64,000 nt of DNA from Cupriavidus pauculus (lineage in GTDB: Bacteria; Pseudomonadota; Gammaproteobacteria; Burkholderiales; Burkholderiaceae). The translations under genes were made by a program, and so were the position numbers. Positions 5,856-60,836 of this stretch are shown here, in pieces (position 1 is the stretch's first letter; each line of letters begins with the position of its first letter). Where the stretch lies: NCBI RefSeq assembly GCF_003854935.1, contig NZ_CP033970.1:1833730-1897729 (forward strand). Reading direction: 5' to 3'. The notes below the pieces were generated by a model that worked only from the letters and a program-made list of their open reading frames with translations, searched no databases and was not told the origin of the DNA.

Positions 5856-6353
5856 TTATCGCCGGATCTGACCGAATCCACCCTCCGCCCATCGCGTCGC
5901 GCTGTCCACCGTCAAACGAAAGTCCGCGGGCACGCTGACGCTCGCCACGACCTCACCATACGGATCGATTGCGGTCAGCGTGCCGAACGGTTCGAATTCG
6001 TCCGGCGTGATTGCGAGTTTGACGGTCAGCATCTGCAAAGCAGTCGTAATGGTGACTTCCTTGTTCAGTCGTGCATGCAACTGCTGCTCGTGCCGGCGGA
6101 TGACTTCGGACGCTGTCTTGACCAACGTCTGGTGCGCAGCCGCGTCGAGCGGCTTGGGATCGACCTTGTTCCGGCCCATTGTCCACGGGCCGACGAGTGC
6201 AGGCTCGACATGACCGTCGCGAATCATCTCCACAGCCCATCCTTCGCCGTCCTCGTTCTTGATGACCCTTGCCGTCCAGCCTTTGTCTCGCCAAATCCTC
6301 GGTTCGTGGATGTGCGGAACGTCGTCTTCCAGGGGGGTGGGATTCGAGGACAT
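5856..6353 (-). CDS. Uncharacterised protein under a LexA box
   Basis: A 165-residue soluble protein that I do not assign to a named family. It has no signal peptide or membrane segment. It opens with a Pro-rich acidic stretch, then a basic/aromatic block (IHEPRIWRDKGWTARVIKNE), a central helix-prone segment (AAHQTLVKTASEVIRRHEQQ), and a C-terminal part rich in beta-type residues. The ATG at 6353 was chosen over 6410 because the longer start would place the LexA box inside the coding region. The consensus LexA site at 6390-6405 lies 37-52 bases upstream, so the gene is probably induced by DNA damage. It converges on the CoA-transferase gene. Confidence 0.75.
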   Translation of the reverse strand: MSSNPTPLEDDVPHIHEPRIWRDKGWTARVIKNEDGEGWAVEMIRDGHVEPALVGPWTMGRNKVDPKPLDAAAHQTLVKTASEVIRRHEQQLHARLNKEVTITTALQMLTVKLAITPDEFEPFGTLTAIDPYGEVVASVSVPADFRLTVDSATRWAEGGFGQIRR

Positions 6354-6389: not shown

Positions 6390-6405
6390 CTGTATGAATA
6401 TACAG
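6390..6405. promoter_or_regulatory. LexA (SOS) box
   Basis: CTGTATGAATATACAG matches the CTGT-N8-ACAG LexA consensus exactly. It sits in an unusually AT-rich patch between the divergent genes at 5856-6353 (minus) and 6637-6954 (plus). Its distance of 37 bases to the minus-strand ATG fits a promoter site for that gene. The plus-strand gene starts 231 bases away and is a less likely target. Confidence 0.85.
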
Positions 6406-54040: not shown

Positions 54041-57000
54041 TCAGCCCGCCGCGCGCGCCGCGTCCGGTGCGTCCGGCGCCGTGCGTGCCAGCACCGGCAC
54101 CAGCGCGGCCCCGGTGTGGCTGGCCTTGATGCGCGCCAGCGCCTCCGGATCGGCCGATCCGACGATGGTGCCGCCCTGCGCGCCGCCTTCCGGCCCCAGG
54201 TCGATGATCCAGTCGGCCTCGGCAATCACGTCGAGGTCGTGCTCGATCACCACCACGCTATGGCCGCCATCGGTCAGCCGGTGCAGCACGCGGATCAGCC
54301 GCGCCACGTCGGCCATGTGCAGGCCCACGGTGGGCTCGTCCAGCACGTAGAGCGTGTGCGCCGCCTTCTGGCCGCGCCGCGTGATGTCGTCGCGCACCTT
54401 CGACAGCTCGGTGACCAGCTTGATCCGCTGCGCCTCGCCGCCGGACAGCGTTGGCGACGGCTGGCCCAGCGTCAGGTAGCCCAGCCCCACGTCCTTCATC
54501 AGCTGCAGCGGATGCGCGATCTGCGTGATGGCGGCGAAGAACGCCACGGCCTCGTCGATCTCCATCGTCAGCACGTCGCCAATGTTCTTGCCGCGCCACG
54601 TCACCGCCAGCGTCTCCGGGTTGAAGCGCTGGCCATGGCAGACGTCGCACGGCACCTTCACATCGGGCAGGAAGCTCATGCCGATGGTGCGCACGCCCTG
54701 GCCCTCGCAGGCCGGGCAGCGCCCCTCGCTGGTATTGAACGAGAACCGCGACGCGCTGTAGCCGCGCGCCTTGGCCTCCAGCGTCTCCGCGAACAGCTTG
54801 CGGATCGCGTCCCAGACGCCGATATAGGTGGCCGGGCACGAGCGCGGCGTCTTGCCGATCGGCGTCTGGTCCACTTCGAGCACGCGGTCGATCGATTCCC
54901 AGCCGCTGATGGCCTCGCAGCCATGCCAGGCATGGGCCACGCTGAGCTGCCGGGTCGCCGTCGGCTTGCCGGCCTTTTCAGCCGCCGCGCGGGCGCGGCG
55001 CGTGGCCGGCGACGACATCACCGAGCGGCCCACCGCATCCAGCAGGTTGGTCATCAGCACGTCGCGCGCCAGCGTGGACTTGCCCGACCCCGACACGCCG
55101 GTGATGGCCACTAGGCGTCCGAGCGGAATGCGGGCCGTCACGTCGCGCAGGTTGTGCAGGTGCGCGCCGTGCACGGTCAGCCATTGCGCGGGCTCGGCTT
55201 CCTTGCCGGCCCGGGCAGGCCGTACCGGCCGGCGCGGCTGCAGCGGGTGGATCATCGGCCGGGCCAGGAAGCGGCCGGTCGTGGAATCGGGCGCCGCCGC
55301 CAGCGCGGCCACGCCACCCTGGGCCACCAGGTTGCCGCCGCGCTTGCCCGCGCCGGGGCCGATGTCGATGATGTGGTCGGCGCGCCGGATCGTGTCCTCG
55401 TCATGCTCCACCACCACCAGCGTGTTGCCCTTGTCGCCCAGCTTGCGCAGGGCGTCGAGCAGGATCTGGTTGTCGCGCGGATGCAGGCCGATGGTCGGCT
55501 CGTCCAGCACGTAGCAGACACCCTGCAGGTTGCTGCCAAGCTGCGCGGCCAGCCGGATCCGCTGCGCTTCGCCGCCGGACAGGCTCGGCGCGGCACGGTC
55601 GAGGCTCAGGTAGCCCAGCCCCACCTCCTCCAGAAACTGCAGGCGGCTGGCGATCTCGGTCACCACGTCGCGGGCGATCTCTGCGTCGCGGCCCGTCAGC
55701 CGCAGGCCGTCGACCCAGCGCCGGGTGTCCGATACCGTCCACTGCGCCACGTCGGTAATCGCGTTGGTGTCGAAGGTCACAGCCCGCGCCACGTCGTTCA
55801 GGCGCGTGCCGCCGCAATCCGGACATGGCGTATCGGCCACGCCTTCGGGCTCCTGCTCCTCCGACGGCAGCGTCTGCTCGCGGCCGCGGTCGTCGCCACC
55901 CACGACGGTGTCGTCGTAGGCCGCGCGCTGCTCGCCGGTCAGCGCCAGCCCGGTGCCCACGCAGGTGCCGCACCAGCCGTGCTTGCTGTTGTACGAGAAC
56001 ATGCGCGGATCGAGTTCCGGATAGCTCGTGCCGCAGACCGGACAGGCGCGCTTGGTCGAGAACACCACCGTCTCGCACTCGTGCGTGGTGCCGCACTGCA
56101 TCGCGTCGCTCAGGCCGTCCAGCGGGGCCAGCAGGTGCATCACGCCCTTGCCGGCTTCCAGCGTCTGGTCCAGCAGCGCGCGCAGCGCCGCCTCGTTATC
56201 TGGCGAAACGACGATGTCGCCGACCGGCAGCTCGATCGTGTGCTCGCGGAAGCGGTCCAGCCGCGGCCACGGGTCCACGGGCAAGAATTCGCCGTCGACG
56301 CGCAGGTGCGTATTGCCGCGCGCCTTGGCCCACTTGGCCAGGTCGGTATAGACGCCCTTGCGGTTAACCACCAGCGGCGCCAGCAGGCCCACGTGCTGGC
56401 CGCGATAGTTGCGCAGCAGTTGCGCGGCAATCGACGCGGGGCTCTGGGACGTCACCGGCGCGCCGTCGTGCACGCAATGCTGGATGCCCAGCTTGACGTA
56501 GAGCAGGCGCAGGAAGTGCCAGACCTCGGACGTCGTCGCCACGGTACTCTTGCGCCCGCCGCGCGACAGCCGCTGCTCGATGGCCACGGTCGGGGGGATG
56601 CCATAGACCGCGTCCACCTCCGGGCGGCCCGCCGGCTGCACGATCGACCGTGCATAGGCGTTCAGCGATTCCAGGTAGCGCCGCTGACCTTCGTGGAACA
56701 GGATGTCGAACGCCAGCGTCGACTTTCCCGACCCGGACACGCCGGTGATGACGTTGAACTTGCCATGCGGGATATCGACGTTCAGCGCCTTGAGGTTGTG
56801 CTCATGAGCGTTGACGATGCGCACCACGCCCTCGCCTTCCACGGCGCGGCGCGCCCGGGCCGCCTGCACCGCCGCCTGCAGCGGCAAGCCGTGGCGGGCC
56901 TGTTCCTCGCGCTCCGCCGCCAGCGTGCCGGCCTCGCCGAGCGCCTGGTCGTAGGCCACCAGCGCGTGCCCGGTATGCGAGTCCGGGCAGCCCTTGACCG

Positions 57001-59905
57001 TCTCGGGCGTGCCCACGCACAGCACCTGCCCACCGGCGTCGCCGCCTTCCGGCCCCAGGTCGATGATCCAGTCTGAGGCGCGGATCACGTCCAGGTTGTG
57101 CTCGATCACGATCAGCGAGTGGCCGCCGTCCAGCAGCTTGCCGAACGCCCGCATCAGCTTGGCGATATCGTCGAAATGCAGGCCGGTGGTCGGTTCGTCG
57201 AACATGAACAGCCGCTTCGGCAGCACCACGGCCTTGCGGTTCTTTGCCGGATGGGCGGCGGCCGTCTCGGCCAGGAAGCCGGCCAGCTTCAGGCGCTGGG
57301 CCTCGCCGCCCGACAGCGTCGGCACGGGCTGGCCCAGCTTCACGTATTCCAGGCCCACGTCGGCAATCGGCGCCAGCACGCGCAGCACGGCGCCGTCGCC
57401 CTCGAACAGCGCCGTGGCCTCGCTGACGGTCAGCTCCAGCACGTCGGCCACGCTCAGCAGGCGCGGCGCCTGTCCGCGCGCGGCGCGCTCGATCTTGACC
57501 TCCAGCACTTCGGCGCGATAGCGGGTGCCGTCGCAGTCCGGGCAACGCAGGTAGACGTCGGACAGGAACTGCATCTCCACGTGCTCGAAGCCCGAGCCGC
57601 CGCAGGTGGGGCATCGGCCATCGCCCGAGTTGAAGCTGAACGTGCCGGCCGTGTAGCCGCGCTGCAGCGCCAGCGGCGCCTTGGCGAACAGCTTGCGGAT
57701 CTCGTCGAACGCGCCCACGTAGCTGGCCGGGTTGGACCGCGCGGTCTTGCCGATCGGCGACTGGTCGACGAACACGACGTCATCGACCAGCTCGGCCCCG
57801 GCCAAGTTGCGGAACGCGCCCGGCGACTCGGTGGCCTTGCCGAAATGGCGCGCCATCGCCGGGTAGAGCACGTCCTGCAGCAGCGTGGACTTGCCCGAGC
57901 CCGACACGCCCGTCACGCAGACCAGCCGGTTCAGCGGAATCTCGACCGTCACGTCCTTGAGGTTGTGCTCCGTCGCGCCTTCCAGCCGCAGGCGCGGGGT
58001 GCCGTCGTCCACGGGGCGCAGCTGCCAGTCCGTGGCGTCGGTCACGCGCCGGCGGCCACCCAGGTAGTCGCCAGTCAGCGTCGGCTCGCCGCGGATGGTC
58101 TCGGGCGTGCCGTCGAAGATGATCGACCCGCCGCGCTCGCCGGGGCCGGGGCCCATGTCGATCAGGCGGTCGGCGGCCAGCATGACCGACGGGTCGTGCT
58201 CCACCACCACAAGCGTGTTGCCCGCGTCGCGCAGCCGGTGCATTGCCTCGACAATGCGGTTCAGGTCGCGCGGATGCAGGCCGATGCTGGGCTCGTCGAG
58301 CACGAACAGCGTGTTGACCAGCGACGTGCCCAGCGCGGTCGTCAGGTTGATCCTCTGCACCTCGCCGCCGGACAGCGTGCGGCTCTGGCGGTCCAGCGTC
58401 AGGTAGCCCAGGCCCACGTCGCACAGGTACTTGAGCCGCGTGCGCACTTCGGCCAGCAGCAGCTTGAGCGCGTCGTCCAGCAACGCGGTGGGCAGCGTCA
58501 GGTCGTCGAAGAAGCGCCGGATACGCGCGATCGGCATCAGCATCAGGTCGTGCACGGTCAGGCCCGGCAACGATTCGAGCTGGCTGCGGTCCCAGTCCAC
58601 GCCACGCGGCAGGAAGCGGCCGGCCGGCGCCAGCACGGCGTCGGCGTTGTCCCGGCTGCCCAGGCGCCACAGCAGCGCCTCGGTCTTGAGCCGGGCGCCG
58701 CCGCAGGTCTCGCACGGCGTGTAGCTGCGGTACTTCGACAGCAGCACGCGGATGTGCATCTTGTACGCCTTCGACTCCAGGTAGTTGAAGAAGCGCATCA
58801 CGCCGTACCACTGCTTGTTCCACTGGCCCGTCCAGTCCGGCGACCCGTGGATGACCCAGTGCTGCTCGGCCTCGGTGAGCTGGTTCCACGGCAGGTCGCG
58901 CGGGATGCCGGCCTTGGCGGCGTAGCGCATCAGGTCGTCCTGGCACTCCTTCCAGGCCGGCGTCTGCATCGGCTTGATCGCGCCGTCGCGCAGCGACTTG
59001 CGGCCGTCGGGGATCACCAGGCCCAGGTCCACGCCGATGACGCGCCCGAAGCCGCGGCACGTTTCGCAGGCGCCATAGGCCGAGTTGAACGAGAACAGCG
59101 CCGGCTGCGGATCGGCGTAGCGGATGTCGCTCTCGGGGCTGTGCAGGCCCGTGGAGAACTTCCAGACCGGGCCCTCGCCGTCATCGGTCACCACGTTCAC
59201 GCTGACCCGCCCGCCGCCGCGCTTCAGCGACGCCTCGATGGCCTCCACGGCGCGGGCTTTTTCCACGTTGCCGATGCGGAAGCGGTCTGCCACCACGTCC
59301 AGCACCTTGCGCCGGCCCGTGGGCGATTCCACGATCCGCTGGCCGTGCACGCGGGTATAGCCGCTGACCGACAGCCACTGCGCCACCTCGTCCTCGGTGG
59401 CCGACTCCGGCAGTTCCACCGGAAACGTGACCACCAGCCGCGCATCGGCAAACGGCTGCCCGGCCGCGGTGCGGGCCTGCAGCTCGGCGTAGATGGTCTC
59501 GGGGGAATCGTGGCGCACCGGCAGCGCGCTCTGCTTGTCGAACAGCTCGGCCGCGCGGGCGTAGAGCAGCTTCAGGTGATCGTTCAGCTCCGTCATCGTG
59601 CCGACCGTGGAGCGCGAGCTGCGCACCGGGTTGGTCTGGTCGATGGCGATGGCGGGCGGCACGCCGTCCACCTTGTCCACCTGCGGACGGTCCATGCGGT
59701 CCAGGAACTGGCGCGCATAGGCGCTGAAGGTCTCGACGTAGCGACGCTGCCCTTCGGCGTACAGGGTGTCGAACACGAGGCTCGACTTGCCCGACCCGGA
59801 CGGCCCCGTCACGACGGTCATCTGCCCCGTGTGCAGGTCCAGATCAATGTTCTTGAGATTGTGCTGACGGGCGCCGCGAATGCGAATGGTGCCGGAATCT
59901 GACAA
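54041..59905 (-). CDS. uvrA: Tandem-duplicated UvrA (double-length excinuclease ABC subunit A)
   Basis: A 1954-residue protein, about twice normal UvrA (~940). The N-terminal half (1 to about 1010) and C-terminal half (about 1030-1954) are each a full UvrA with two ABC domains. Walker A motifs lie near residues 35 (GPSGSGKSS), 668, 1057 and 1603 (each GVSGSGKST), each paired with LSGGE signatures. The late zinc modules are complete (CPTCGGSG with CPDCDG; CPACEGQG with CDVCHG). In the first half the first zinc module keeps only CETCRGFG, and its CPxCG pair is replaced, while the second half keeps CPVCGTSYPELDPRMFS. The start is TTG at 59905, after GAGG. A LexA box lies about 96 bases upstream. 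It should recognise DNA damage for excision repair, or sense drugs or DNA adducts as UvrA2 types do. Confidence 0.95.
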   Translation of the reverse strand: MSDSGTIRIRGARQHNLKNIDLDLHTGQMTVVTGPSGSGKSSLVFDTLYAEGQRRYVETFSAYARQFLDRMDRPQVDKVDGVPPAIAIDQTNPVRSSRSTVGTMTELNDHLKLLYARAAELFDKQSALPVRHDSPETIYAELQARTAAGQPFADARLVVTFPVELPESATEDEVAQWLSVSGYTRVHGQRIVESPTGRRKVLDVVADRFRIGNVEKARAVEAIEASLKRGGGRVSVNVVTDDGEGPVWKFSTGLHSPESDIRYADPQPALFSFNSAYGACETCRGFGRVIGVDLGLVIPDGRKSLRDGAIKPMQTPAWKECQDDLMRYAAKAGIPRDLPWNQLTEAEQHWVIHGSPDWTGQWNKQWYGVMRFFNYLESKAYKMHIRVLLSKYRSYTPCETCGGARLKTEALLWRLGSRDNADAVLAPAGRFLPRGVDWDRSQLESLPGLTVHDLMLMPIARIRRFFDDLTLPTALLDDALKLLLAEVRTRLKYLCDVGLGYLTLDRQSRTLSGGEVQRINLTTALGTSLVNTLFVLDEPSIGLHPRDLNRIVEAMHRLRDAGNTLVVVEHDPSVMLAADRLIDMGPGPGERGGSIIFDGTPETIRGEPTLTGDYLGGRRRVTDATDWQLRPVDDGTPRLRLEGATEHNLKDVTVEIPLNRLVCVTGVSGSGKSTLLQDVLYPAMARHFGKATESPGAFRNLAGAELVDDVVFVDQSPIGKTARSNPASYVGAFDEIRKLFAKAPLALQRGYTAGTFSFNSGDGRCPTCGGSGFEHVEMQFLSDVYLRCPDCDGTRYRAEVLEVKIERAARGQAPRLLSVADVLELTVSEATALFEGDGAVLRVLAPIADVGLEYVKLGQPVPTLSGGEAQRLKLAGFLAETAAAHPAKNRKAVVLPKRLFMFDEPTTGLHFDDIAKLMRAFGKLLDGGHSLIVIEHNLDVIRASDWIIDLGPEGGDAGGQVLCVGTPETVKGCPDSHTGHALVAYDQALGEAGTLAAEREEQARHGLPLQAAVQAARARRAVEGEGVVRIVNAHEHNLKALNVDIPHGKFNVITGVSGSGKSTLAFDILFHEGQRRYLESLNAYARSIVQPAGRPEVDAVYGIPPTVAIEQRLSRGGRKSTVATTSEVWHFLRLLYVKLGIQHCVHDGAPVTSQSPASIAAQLLRNYRGQHVGLLAPLVVNRKGVYTDLAKWAKARGNTHLRVDGEFLPVDPWPRLDRFREHTIELPVGDIVVSPDNEAALRALLDQTLEAGKGVMHLLAPLDGLSDAMQCGTTHECETVVFSTKRACPVCGTSYPELDPRMFSYNSKHGWCGTCVGTGLALTGEQRAAYDDTVVGGDDRGREQTLPSEEQEPEGVADTPCPDCGGTRLNDVARAVTFDTNAITDVAQWTVSDTRRWVDGLRLTGRDAEIARDVVTEIASRLQFLEEVGLGYLSLDRAAPSLSGGEAQRIRLAAQLGSNLQGVCYVLDEPTIGLHPRDNQILLDALRKLGDKGNTLVVVEHDEDTIRRADHIIDIGPGAGKRGGNLVAQGGVAALAAAPDSTTGRFLARPMIHPLQPRRPVRPARAGKEAEPAQWLTVHGAHLHNLRDVTARIPLGRLVAITGVSGSGKSTLARDVLMTNLLDAVGRSVMSSPATRRARAAAEKAGKPTATRQLSVAHAWHGCEAISGWESIDRVLEVDQTPIGKTPRSCPATYIGVWDAIRKLFAETLEAKARGYSASRFSFNTSEGRCPACEGQGVRTIGMSFLPDVKVPCDVCHGQRFNPETLAVTWRGKNIGDVLTMEIDEAVAFFAAITQIAHPLQLMKDVGLGYLTLGQPSPTLSGGEAQRIKLVTELSKVRDDITRRGQKAAHTLYVLDEPTVGLHMADVARLIRVLHRLTDGGHSVVVIEHDLDVIAEADWIIDLGPEGGAQGGTIVGSADPEALARIKASHTGAALVPVLARTAPDAPDAARAAG

Positions 59906-60000
59906 TTTCTTGCCTCGAATCAGTAGGTTGGAAGCGAAACCTGAAGTGTTGCATGCACTTGGCTGCGCAGGGCTCCGGAGGCGGAGGTGCCGTAACTATA

Positions 60001-60016
60001 CTGTATAAACGTACAG
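60001..60016. promoter_or_regulatory. LexA (SOS) box upstream of double uvrA
   Basis: CTGTATAAACGTACAG matches CTGT-N8-ACAG exactly. It lies 96-111 bases upstream of the minus-strand uvrA start and 150 bases from the plus-strand toxin gene. Damage-inducible control of uvrA is the natural reading. Confidence 0.85.
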
Positions 60017-60165: not shown

Positions 60166-60426
60166 ATGCAGCACACGATCGACTTCACCAGACAGGCTAC
60201 ACAGCAGTTGTTGGCGATGCCACGAAACATTGCCGCCAACATCCGCGCCAAGATCGACTTGCTGGCGGCCAATCCGTACGCGCCGAACCAGAACGTCAGG
60301 AAACTTGCCGGCCGGGATGCCTTCCGGCTCCGCGTGGGCGACTGGCGCGTCGTGTACAGGATCGAGGCCGGGCAACTGGTGATCGTGGTGCTGACCGTCA
60401 AATCCCGTGGGAGTGCCTATTCATGA
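60166..60426 (+). CDS. RelE/ParE-superfamily toxin
   Basis: An 86-residue RelE/ParE fold toxin. Family pattern is seen in LLAMPRNIAANIRAKIDLLA, then NVRKLAGRDAFRLRVGDWRV and VVYRIEAGQLVIVVLTVKSRG. RelE members cut ribosome-bound mRNA; the basic C-terminus suits this, though ParE-type gyrase targeting cannot be excluded. The gene overlaps the antitoxin gene as ATGA and lies first in the operon, the HigBA-like order. Confidence 0.88.
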   Translation: MQHTIDFTRQATQQLLAMPRNIAANIRAKIDLLAANPYAPNQNVRKLAGRDAFRLRVGDWRVVYRIEAGQLVIVVLTVKSRGSAYS

Positions 60427-60836
60427 ACGCCATCCAATTCATCGAGCGTGACGGCCAACGCGAGTACGCGATCGTGCCGATCGACATCTGGGAGCGGGTC
60501 CGCGAACTCGTCGAGGATGCCGAAGACGTGCTGCTTCACGACGCCGCCGTGGCGGCCGACGACGGCTTTCGCGTGCCGTCCGCCGTGGTGGACGCGCTGC
60601 TGGCCGGCGACCATCCCGTCAAGGCGTGGCGCATGCACCGCCGCCTGACCCAGGACGCCCTGGCCACGGCCGCCGGCCTCAGCAAGCCCTACCTGAGCCA
60701 GATCGAAACCCGCAAGCGCGACGGCAGCGTGGACGTGCTGCGGGCCCTGGCCACGGCGCTCGGGGTGCCGCTCGACGCGCTGGTCGAGCGCCCTGCGGCT
60801 AGCCCTGCTGCGGCAGCTTCCAGCCCGGCCGGATGA
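60423..60836 (+). CDS. XRE-type antitoxin with N-terminal Phd-like segment
   Basis: A 137-residue antitoxin. Residues 1 to about 55 ([20 protein letters not shown] and [17 protein letters not shown]) resemble the short Phd/RelB-type toxin-binding segment. Residues 66-120 form an XRE/Cro HTH ([43 protein letters not shown]), followed by an Ala/Pro/Ser tail. This joins two antitoxin styles in one chain. Start and toxin stop overlap by four bases. It overlaps the convergent msrA gene by 38 bases. Confidence 0.88.

What the first reader, a model, noticed from the sequence alone, without database searches (positions are those of the whole stretch)
54041..60016. SOS-linked tandem UvrA with an incomplete first zinc module
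One protein holds two full UvrA units, four Walker A motifs and four LSGGE signatures, behind an exact LexA box. The first half lacks the CPxCG pair of the first zinc module while the second half keeps it. A built-in dimer with one altered arm may recognise different lesions from normal UvrA. Long UvrA proteins are known, but this asymmetry and SOS control deserve study.
Basis: partly seen in the sequence, partly recalled or inferred. Interest (0 to 1): 0.7.

Follow-up and report, generated by a model that had tools for sequence, protein, structure and literature searches.

The report
Lopsided fused UvrA under SOS control
A long DNA-repair protein made of two joined copies of the damage sensor UvrA keeps its DNA-reading arm and its likely UvrB-docking residues in only one half, and sits behind a DNA-damage switch, so it could show whether one UvrB is enough for repair.

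Summary
The finding is real. The gene (59905 to 54041, minus strand, 1954 aa) joins two UvrA units with four intact ATPase sites, 96 nt behind an exact LexA box. The same box type precedes recA, lexA and dinB in this genome. An exact box precedes 38 of 120 tandem genes scanned (six control patterns: 0-1), but only 1 of 57 ordinary uvrA genes of the genus and family.

The zinc-1 loss in half 1 is real (104 of 123 tandem proteins) but not special: 12 of 30 ordinary UvrA lack three of its four ligands. The deeper asymmetry was missed. Only half 1 has the insertion domain. Half 1 keeps residues equivalent to E. coli R216 and E222 (mutated in print as the UvrB surface) and D205-R206; half 2 has lost them. 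Half 2 alone keeps R158-K159-G160, H198 and R730. Each half forms one clade.

Best reading: an SOS-induced, covalently asymmetric UvrA pseudo-dimer that docks one UvrB, on half 1. The docking and the induction are inferred, not shown. Tandem UvrA is common in Burkholderiales and annotated simply as UvrA; nine searches of the held library did not turn up a description of this division. The structure prediction did not finish.

The parts
54041..59905 (-). tandem uvrA gene (uvrA2 in C. metallidurans), TTG start, 1954 aa
   Evidence: TIGR00630 1876.9 bits against cut-off 729.8 and NF001503 1915.7 against 1147
60001..60016 (-). LexA box CTGTACGTTTATACAG (read on the gene's strand), 96 nt upstream of the start codon
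   Evidence: exact box upstream of 38 of 120 tandem loci, controls 0,1,0,0,0,0
56885..59905 (-). half 1 (residues 1-1007): complete two-ATPase UvrA unit with insertion domain; the cut at 1007/1008 is mine, within the linker
54044..56884 (-). half 2 (residues 1008-1954): two-ATPase UvrA unit without insertion domain
59129..59539 (-). half 1 zinc-1 region and UvrB-binding domain (residues 123-259): all four zinc-1 ligand positions lost; keeps R185, D207, R208, R218, E224 (E. coli R176, D205, R206, R216, E222)
   Evidence: PF17760 only 22.8 bits, cut-off 23.3
58718..59032 (-). half 1 insertion (DNA-binding) domain, residues 292-396, between the zinc-2 cysteine pairs
   Evidence: PF17755 45.4 bits
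56033..56476 (-). half 2 zinc-1 region and UvrB-binding domain (residues 1144-1291): C1144, D1147, C1288, C1291; keeps R1182-K1183-G1184 and H1222, lost the R176/D205/R206/R216/E222 equivalents
   Evidence: PF17760 83.8 bits
55829..55939 (-). short linker of half 2 (residues 1323-1359) in place of the insertion domain

Best explanation
The protein is a covalent UvrA pseudo-dimer that works as a damage-inducible sensor and UvrB loader for nucleotide excision repair. LexA represses it; damage relieves this. All four ATPase sites are kept. Half 1 carries the one insertion domain, which senses the lesion, and the one UvrB/Mfd-docking surface; half 2 supplies ATPases and the stronger signature-II DNA contacts. 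[quoted passage not shown] The protein would thus load one UvrB on one side, not two. Shown by sequence: fusion, intact ATPase motifs, domain and residue asymmetry, box and its conservation. Inferred: LexA repression, pairing of the two halves with each other, UvrB docking on half 1 only, role in NER.
For: Residues printed as the UvrB interaction surface of E. coli UvrA (R216A E222A, PMC3025350 passages) are R in 123 of 123 and E in 121 of 123 in half 1, but R in 3 and E in 12 of 123 in half 2; D205 and R206: 123 against 0; R176: 113 (10 K) against 1. Insertion domain: 99-107 residues between zinc-2 pairs in half 1, 19-38 in half 2, 123 rows. R730, one of four Arg mutated together to abolish DNA binding: 0 in half 1, 123 in half 2; R712 and R724 kept in both. 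Walker A Lys: half 1 122 (one gap) and 123, half 2 123 and 123 of 123. Box before 38 of 120 tandem loci against 0,1,0,0,0,0 for control patterns, and before recA, lexA, dinB; ordinary uvrA has an exact box in 1 of 30 (genus, 600 nt) and 0 of 27 (family, 300 nt). Two-contact UvrB interface: PMC7616783 passages. In genome G392 the tandem is the only UvrA found.
Against: No protein or expression experiment. Half 2 matches the UvrB-interaction domain model better (83.8 bits) than half 1 (22.8, just under the cut-off), so UvrB could dock on half 2 in a changed way. The residues split between halves in the UvrB domain (4 half-1-only, 4 half-2-only, 3 both, 4 neither, 8 mixed of 23) are about as exclusive as independent loss predicts (8 seen, about 7.5 expected by hand from the margins). 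Two UvrB contacts printed for signature II (T754, S780; numbering is one off from the 3pih chain) do not separate the halves clearly and are absent from this genome's ordinary UvrA. The box is missing in 82 of 120 tandem loci, including Ralstonia and the Comamonadaceae rows, and before both copies in G392. No sigma-70-like promoter was found. No structure model was obtained.
Confidence: 0.45

Rival explanations
1. An ordinary second UvrA: the fusion only fixes the dimer, both UvrB domains still bind UvrB or Mfd, and the sequence differences have little effect.
For: All ATPase motifs and the checked zinc-2 and zinc-3 cysteines kept in both halves; half 2 still scores 83.8 bits with the UvrB-interaction model; NCBI names it excinuclease ABC subunit UvrA.
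Against: The half-specific residues and the missing insertion domain hold across 123 of 123 rows (D205, R206, R158, H198, R730), which is not drift; in E. coli, deleting the insertion domain weakens lesion discrimination (PMC3025350 passages).
Confidence: 0.25
2. A UvrB-independent guard: it binds particular adducts or intercalators and clears or marks them, like Ecm16/DrrC or class II UvrA2.
For: Those proteins also work as second UvrA copies and rely on the insertion domain (PMC10192343 passages); zinc 1 of half 1 is lost in 104 of 123.
Against: Class II proteins lack the whole UvrB-binding domain; here both halves keep one (101-181 and 114-148 residues in the 37 aligned), and the printed UvrB-surface residues are conserved in half 1. 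This genome has a separate class II protein.
Confidence: 0.15
3. A regulator of repair: half 1 occupies UvrB or Mfd and modulates ordinary UvrA during the SOS response, rather than loading UvrB itself.
For: Ordinary uvrA without a box is present in 30 of 30 genus genomes, so the tandem acts beside it there.
Against: Four conserved ATPase sites and the signature-II DNA contacts argue for an active enzyme; in G392 it is the only UvrA found.
Confidence: 0.1

Closest known systems
Ordinary class I UvrA (E. coli, B. stearothermophilus 2R6F, T. maritima 3PIH)
   Same: Same fold order, ATPase motifs, zinc 2 and 3, UvrB-binding domain.
   Different: One unit per chain, symmetric homodimer; each unit has insertion domain and UvrB surface. 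Here two units are fused and each lacks a different part.
Class II UvrA2 / Ecm16 / DrrC
   Same: Second UvrA-like protein beside ordinary UvrA; insertion domain kept in half 1.
   Different: Class II lacks UvrB-binding domain and zinc 1 altogether; both halves here keep a UvrB-binding domain.
NCBIfam NF001885 (PRK00635), excinuclease ABC subunit A of 1809 positions; I recall this as the chlamydial tandem UvrA
   Same: Tandem UvrA of similar length; five matched stretches.
   Different: 1066 bits against a cut-off of 3054: not that family. Whether its halves share this asymmetry was not tested.
uvrA2 (Rmet_4549) of Cupriavidus metallidurans CH34
   Same: Very likely the direct orthologue: second excinuclease gene on the second replicon (PMC2864759 passages); tandem gene at 93.3% identity on that replicon. 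The locus tag was not matched to the coordinates.
   Different: The passages seen do not mention the fusion, the box or the asymmetry.
Beta-proteobacterial SOS core 'uvrA' (PMC3323433)
   Same: Reports uvrA under LexA in Burkholderiaceae including Cupriavidus (section 7 and passages read).
   Different: Does not say in what I read which uvrA; ordinary uvrA here has no conserved box, so I infer the tandem gene was meant. Its Figure 5 was not available.

Membership tests
UvrA (NCBIfam TIGR00630 / NF001503) | score above curated cut-off | tested here: met
   1876.9 against 729.8 and 1915.7 against 1147 bits
UvrA (class I) | two Walker A and two signature motifs per unit, zinc 2 and 3 cysteines | tested here: met
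   both halves
UvrA (class I) | UvrB-binding domain with conserved surface | tested here: inconclusive
   half 1 keeps the surface residues but 22.8 bits (cut-off 23.3); half 2 83.8 bits but surface residues lost
UvrA (class I) | insertion domain in each unit | tested here: not met
   present in half 1, absent in half 2
UvrA (class I) | zinc module 1 | tested here: not met
   no ligand left in half 1 of this protein; CxxD + CxxC in half 2; but 12 of 30 ordinary UvrA also lack three of four ligands, so it does not define the class
Class II UvrA2 / Ecm16 | no UvrB-binding domain | tested here: not met
   both halves retain one
Tandem UvrA NF001885 | score above curated cut-off | tested here: not met
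   1066 against 3054 bits
LexA regulon gene | LexA box upstream, conserved in orthologues | tested here: met
   restricted to part of the Burkholderiaceae
LexA regulon gene | binds LexA and is induced by damage | not testable with these tools
   no expression or binding data
NER enzyme | loads UvrB and supports incision | not testable with these tools
   needs biochemistry

The most novel reading that the evidence does not exclude
A naturally asymmetric, single-chain UvrA that loads exactly one UvrB on a fixed side of the lesion: a natural UvrA2B1 machine, induced by SOS and in some genomes (G392) able to replace ordinary UvrA. It would show that loading two UvrB molecules is not required for excision or strand choice.
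Probability: 0.3. Interest if true: 0.8.

Novelty: new variant of a known kind. Interest (0 to 1): 0.6.

Why it matters
Whether the damage sensor is UvrA2B2 or UvrA2B1, and how two loaded UvrB become one in the incision complex, is stated as unreconciled in a review (PMC7835731 passages); another study argues that two UvrB, one per strand, are how the system finds the damaged strand (PMC7616783 passages). A family in which nature has fused the dimer and seemingly removed one docking surface and one insertion domain offers a direct test, because each half can be mutated on its own. It may also change how the SOS regulon of this group is read: the LexA-controlled uvrA would be the fused gene, not the ordinary one.

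Tried and rejected
Zinc-1 loss as the central feature: rejected, since 12 of 30 ordinary UvrA show it. Half 2 as the UvrB dock, my first reading from Pfam scores: turned round after the residue alignment with E. coli; the scores remain evidence against my reading. Residue-level complementary partition as a statistical claim: not made, because exclusivity equals what independent loss predicts. Signature-II UvrB contacts: inconclusive. Conserved gene neighbourhood: none evident in the two annotated records; the third, C. metallidurans, carries no annotation. Literature: nine searches turned up no description of the split, seen as listings plus the passages I opened; two of them returned no papers. 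My recollection that R176 and R206 contact UvrB was not confirmed. Structure: the half 2 job had not finished; half 1 was never accepted. No chlamydial tandem sequence was obtained.

Full report
What is there. The gene runs from 59905 to 54041 on the minus strand, starts with TTG, and encodes 1954 residues. It scores as UvrA over NCBI's cut-offs (1876.9 bits for TIGR00630, cut-off 729.8). Walker A motifs lie at residues 34, 666, 1055 and 1603 and LSGGE at 511, 864, 1442 and 1820. The window lies in a Cupriavidus-like genome: the closest named records are C. pauculus (best segment 96%) and C. metallidurans (93.3%). The genome also holds an ordinary uvrA and a third, class II-like UvrA of 902 aa.

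LexA box. CTGTATAAACGTACAG lies at 60001-60016, 96 nt before the start. In the genome TACTGTN8ACAG occurs in 25 strand-wise rows (15 distinct sites by my count) against 3 for the reversed pattern. Sites precede RecA (TIGR02012, 571.5 bits), LexA (TIGR00498, 230.6 bits; two boxes) and DNA polymerase IV (NF002677, 279.4 bits, cut-off 256). Within 300 nt upstream of tandem genes an exact CTGTN8ACAG is present in 38 of 120 loci; spacings of 6, 7, 9, 10 and two reversed patterns give 0, 0, 1, 0, 0, 0. Four loci were left out for short upstream sequence (one of them, L014, has the box), and one counted row (L133) is a truncated gene. In the relatives the box is in the 18 loci L006-L023 and, even with one mismatch, absent from L024-L034. 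Among named loci it is in 20, all from Cupriavidus, Burkholderia, Paraburkholderia, Caballeronia, Pandoraea or a Candidatus Burkholderia; it is missing in Ralstonia, C. gilardii, Ca. B. crenata, a Cupriavidus MAG and the Comamonadaceae-type rows. A further family draw gave 11 of 18 scanned tandem rows (L141 is also; L259 and L264 are identical copies; L250 and L265 gave no start). Ordinary uvrA: an exact match in 1 of 30 genus loci within 600 nt (L213, a GC-rich one), and 0 of 27 further family loci within 300 nt; one-mismatch matches occur in one more of each (L218, L245). E. coli's own uvrA site has one mismatch to the exact pattern, so exact counts miss weak sites. No sigma-70-like promoter was found near the box.

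Zinc 1. This module belongs to the UvrB-binding domain, and zinc 2 flanks the insertion domain (PMC10192343, passages). In this protein half 1 has none of the four zinc-1 ligand positions; half 2 has C, D, C, C. In 123 tandem proteins longer than 1700 aa (of 124 gathered), half 1 has all four Cys in 19, one in 65 and none in 39; half 2 has C,D,C,C in 105, four Cys in 17 and C,A,C,C in 1. Of 30 ordinary proteobacterial UvrA, 14 have CHCC, 4 CCCC and 12 STCS.

The stronger asymmetry. With Pfam, half 1 matches the UvrA DNA-binding (insertion) domain at 45.4 bits and the UvrB-interaction domain at 22.8 (cut-off 23.3); half 2 matches the interaction domain at 83.8 and has no insertion-domain match; the ordinary UvrA of this genome scores 127.3 and 110.2. 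Between the zinc-2 pairs half 1 has 99-107 residues and half 2 19-38 in 123 proteins. In E. coli numbering (UvrA WP_000357740.1), counts of the canonical residue in half 1 and half 2 of 123 are: R158 0/123, K159 1/123, G160 1/123, R176 113/1, H198 0/123, D205 123/0, R206 123/0, R216 123/3, E222 121/12, R730 0/123. R712 and R724 are kept in both halves throughout. R216A E222A is the UvrB-surface mutant, R712A R722A R724A R730A the DNA-binding mutant, and the 290-400 deletion the insertion-domain mutant with poorer lesion discrimination in E. coli (PMC3025350, passages). Over domains, positions at least 97% invariant in ordinary UvrA are kept in both halves in 35 of 76 (N-terminal ATPase part), 3 of 23 (UvrB domain), 8 of 14, 0 of 11 (insertion domain), 46 of 75 and 86 of 128 (C-terminal ATPase part), in the 37 tandem proteins chosen of 124. 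Divergence is thus concentrated in the two accessory domains. The split in the UvrB domain (8 exclusive positions) is no more than independent loss would give (about 7.5, worked by hand).

Origin and spread. In a quick maximum-likelihood tree of 78 rows, half 1 (23 rows), half 2 (23) and ordinary UvrA (31) are each one side of a branch (SH-aLRT 100, 100, 99); the single class II row is a long branch whose place is unsure. One fusion, old relative to these lineages, explains this. The tandem gene is in 22 of 23 same-genus relatives (the missing one is 54% complete) and 6 of 16 other-family representatives of the order; in draws, 59 of 150 genomes of the order (one, G101, by a single-length frame), 20 of 143 of the class (two, G239 and G278, single-length; some others on split frames, not checked one by one) and 21 of 41 of the family.

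A natural test case. In the family draw, 8 of 41 genomes gave no ordinary uvrA at E 1e-250; seven of these have no tandem gene either and are 0.2-1.2 Mb. The eighth, G392 (2.6 Mb, 97% complete), has two identical tandem copies, and all ten matches to ordinary UvrA at E 1e-10 or better lie inside them. One copy lies near a contig start, so the duplication may be an assembly effect. It shows the same residue split and has no box in 300 nt. Incomplete assembly is not excluded and uvrB/uvrC were not checked.

Mechanism. [quoted passage not shown] With docking residues and insertion domain on half 1, and the fuller signature-II DNA contacts on half 2, the simplest reading is one working UvrB-loading face per fused protein, induced by SOS. 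Shown: fusion, motifs, asymmetry, box. Inferred: that the halves pair within one chain, that half 2 does not bind UvrB, that LexA represses, and that the output is excision repair. Against: half 2 has the better overall interaction-domain score; two printed signature-II contacts are uninformative; the box is missing in most non-Burkholderiaceae relatives. No structure model was obtained.

Against what is known. Tandem UvrA proteins are named in databases (NF001885, which this protein fails at 1066 of 3054 bits; that it is the chlamydial type is recalled). The C. metallidurans genome paper calls the chromosome-2 copy uvrA2 (PMC2864759, passages), and LexA sites at 'uvrA' are reported for this group (PMC3323433, section 7 and passages). 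Nine library searches brought up no account of the asymmetry. I therefore rate it a new variant of a known kind. UvrB stoichiometry, the question it could settle, is described as variously estimated and in need of reconciling (PMC7835731, passages).

Noticed in passing
window 6390-6405: A second exact LexA-type box (CTGTATGAATATACAG) just upstream of a minus-strand ORF (5859-6350) with no Pfam or NCBIfam match: a candidate uncharacterised SOS gene.
   Followed up: partly
L036:335-1489 (own genome, C2 near 41889): A PA0069-family radical SAM protein (NF033668, 479.2 bits, cut-off 360) directly behind a LexA-type box; I recall this family as related to photoproduct lyases.
   Followed up: partly
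window 60166-60836, plus strand: ParE/RelE-like toxin (PF05016) and helix-turn-helix partner, divergent from the tandem uvrA; Burkholderia stagnalis has a Phd/YefM antitoxin gene at the same side.
   Followed up: partly
G392 (L259, L264): Genome with two identical tandem uvrA copies and no ordinary uvrA found; possible sole-UvrA case.
   Followed up: partly
G115:C1:265868-271505: Tandem uvrA match split over two overlapping frames of 1229 and 1216 aa: natural split or frameshift.
   Followed up: no
L156-L185 (ordinary UvrA): 12 of 30 ordinary proteobacterial UvrA have S/T/C/S in place of the zinc-1 ligands, so zinc module 1 is dispensable in many lineages.
   Followed up: partly
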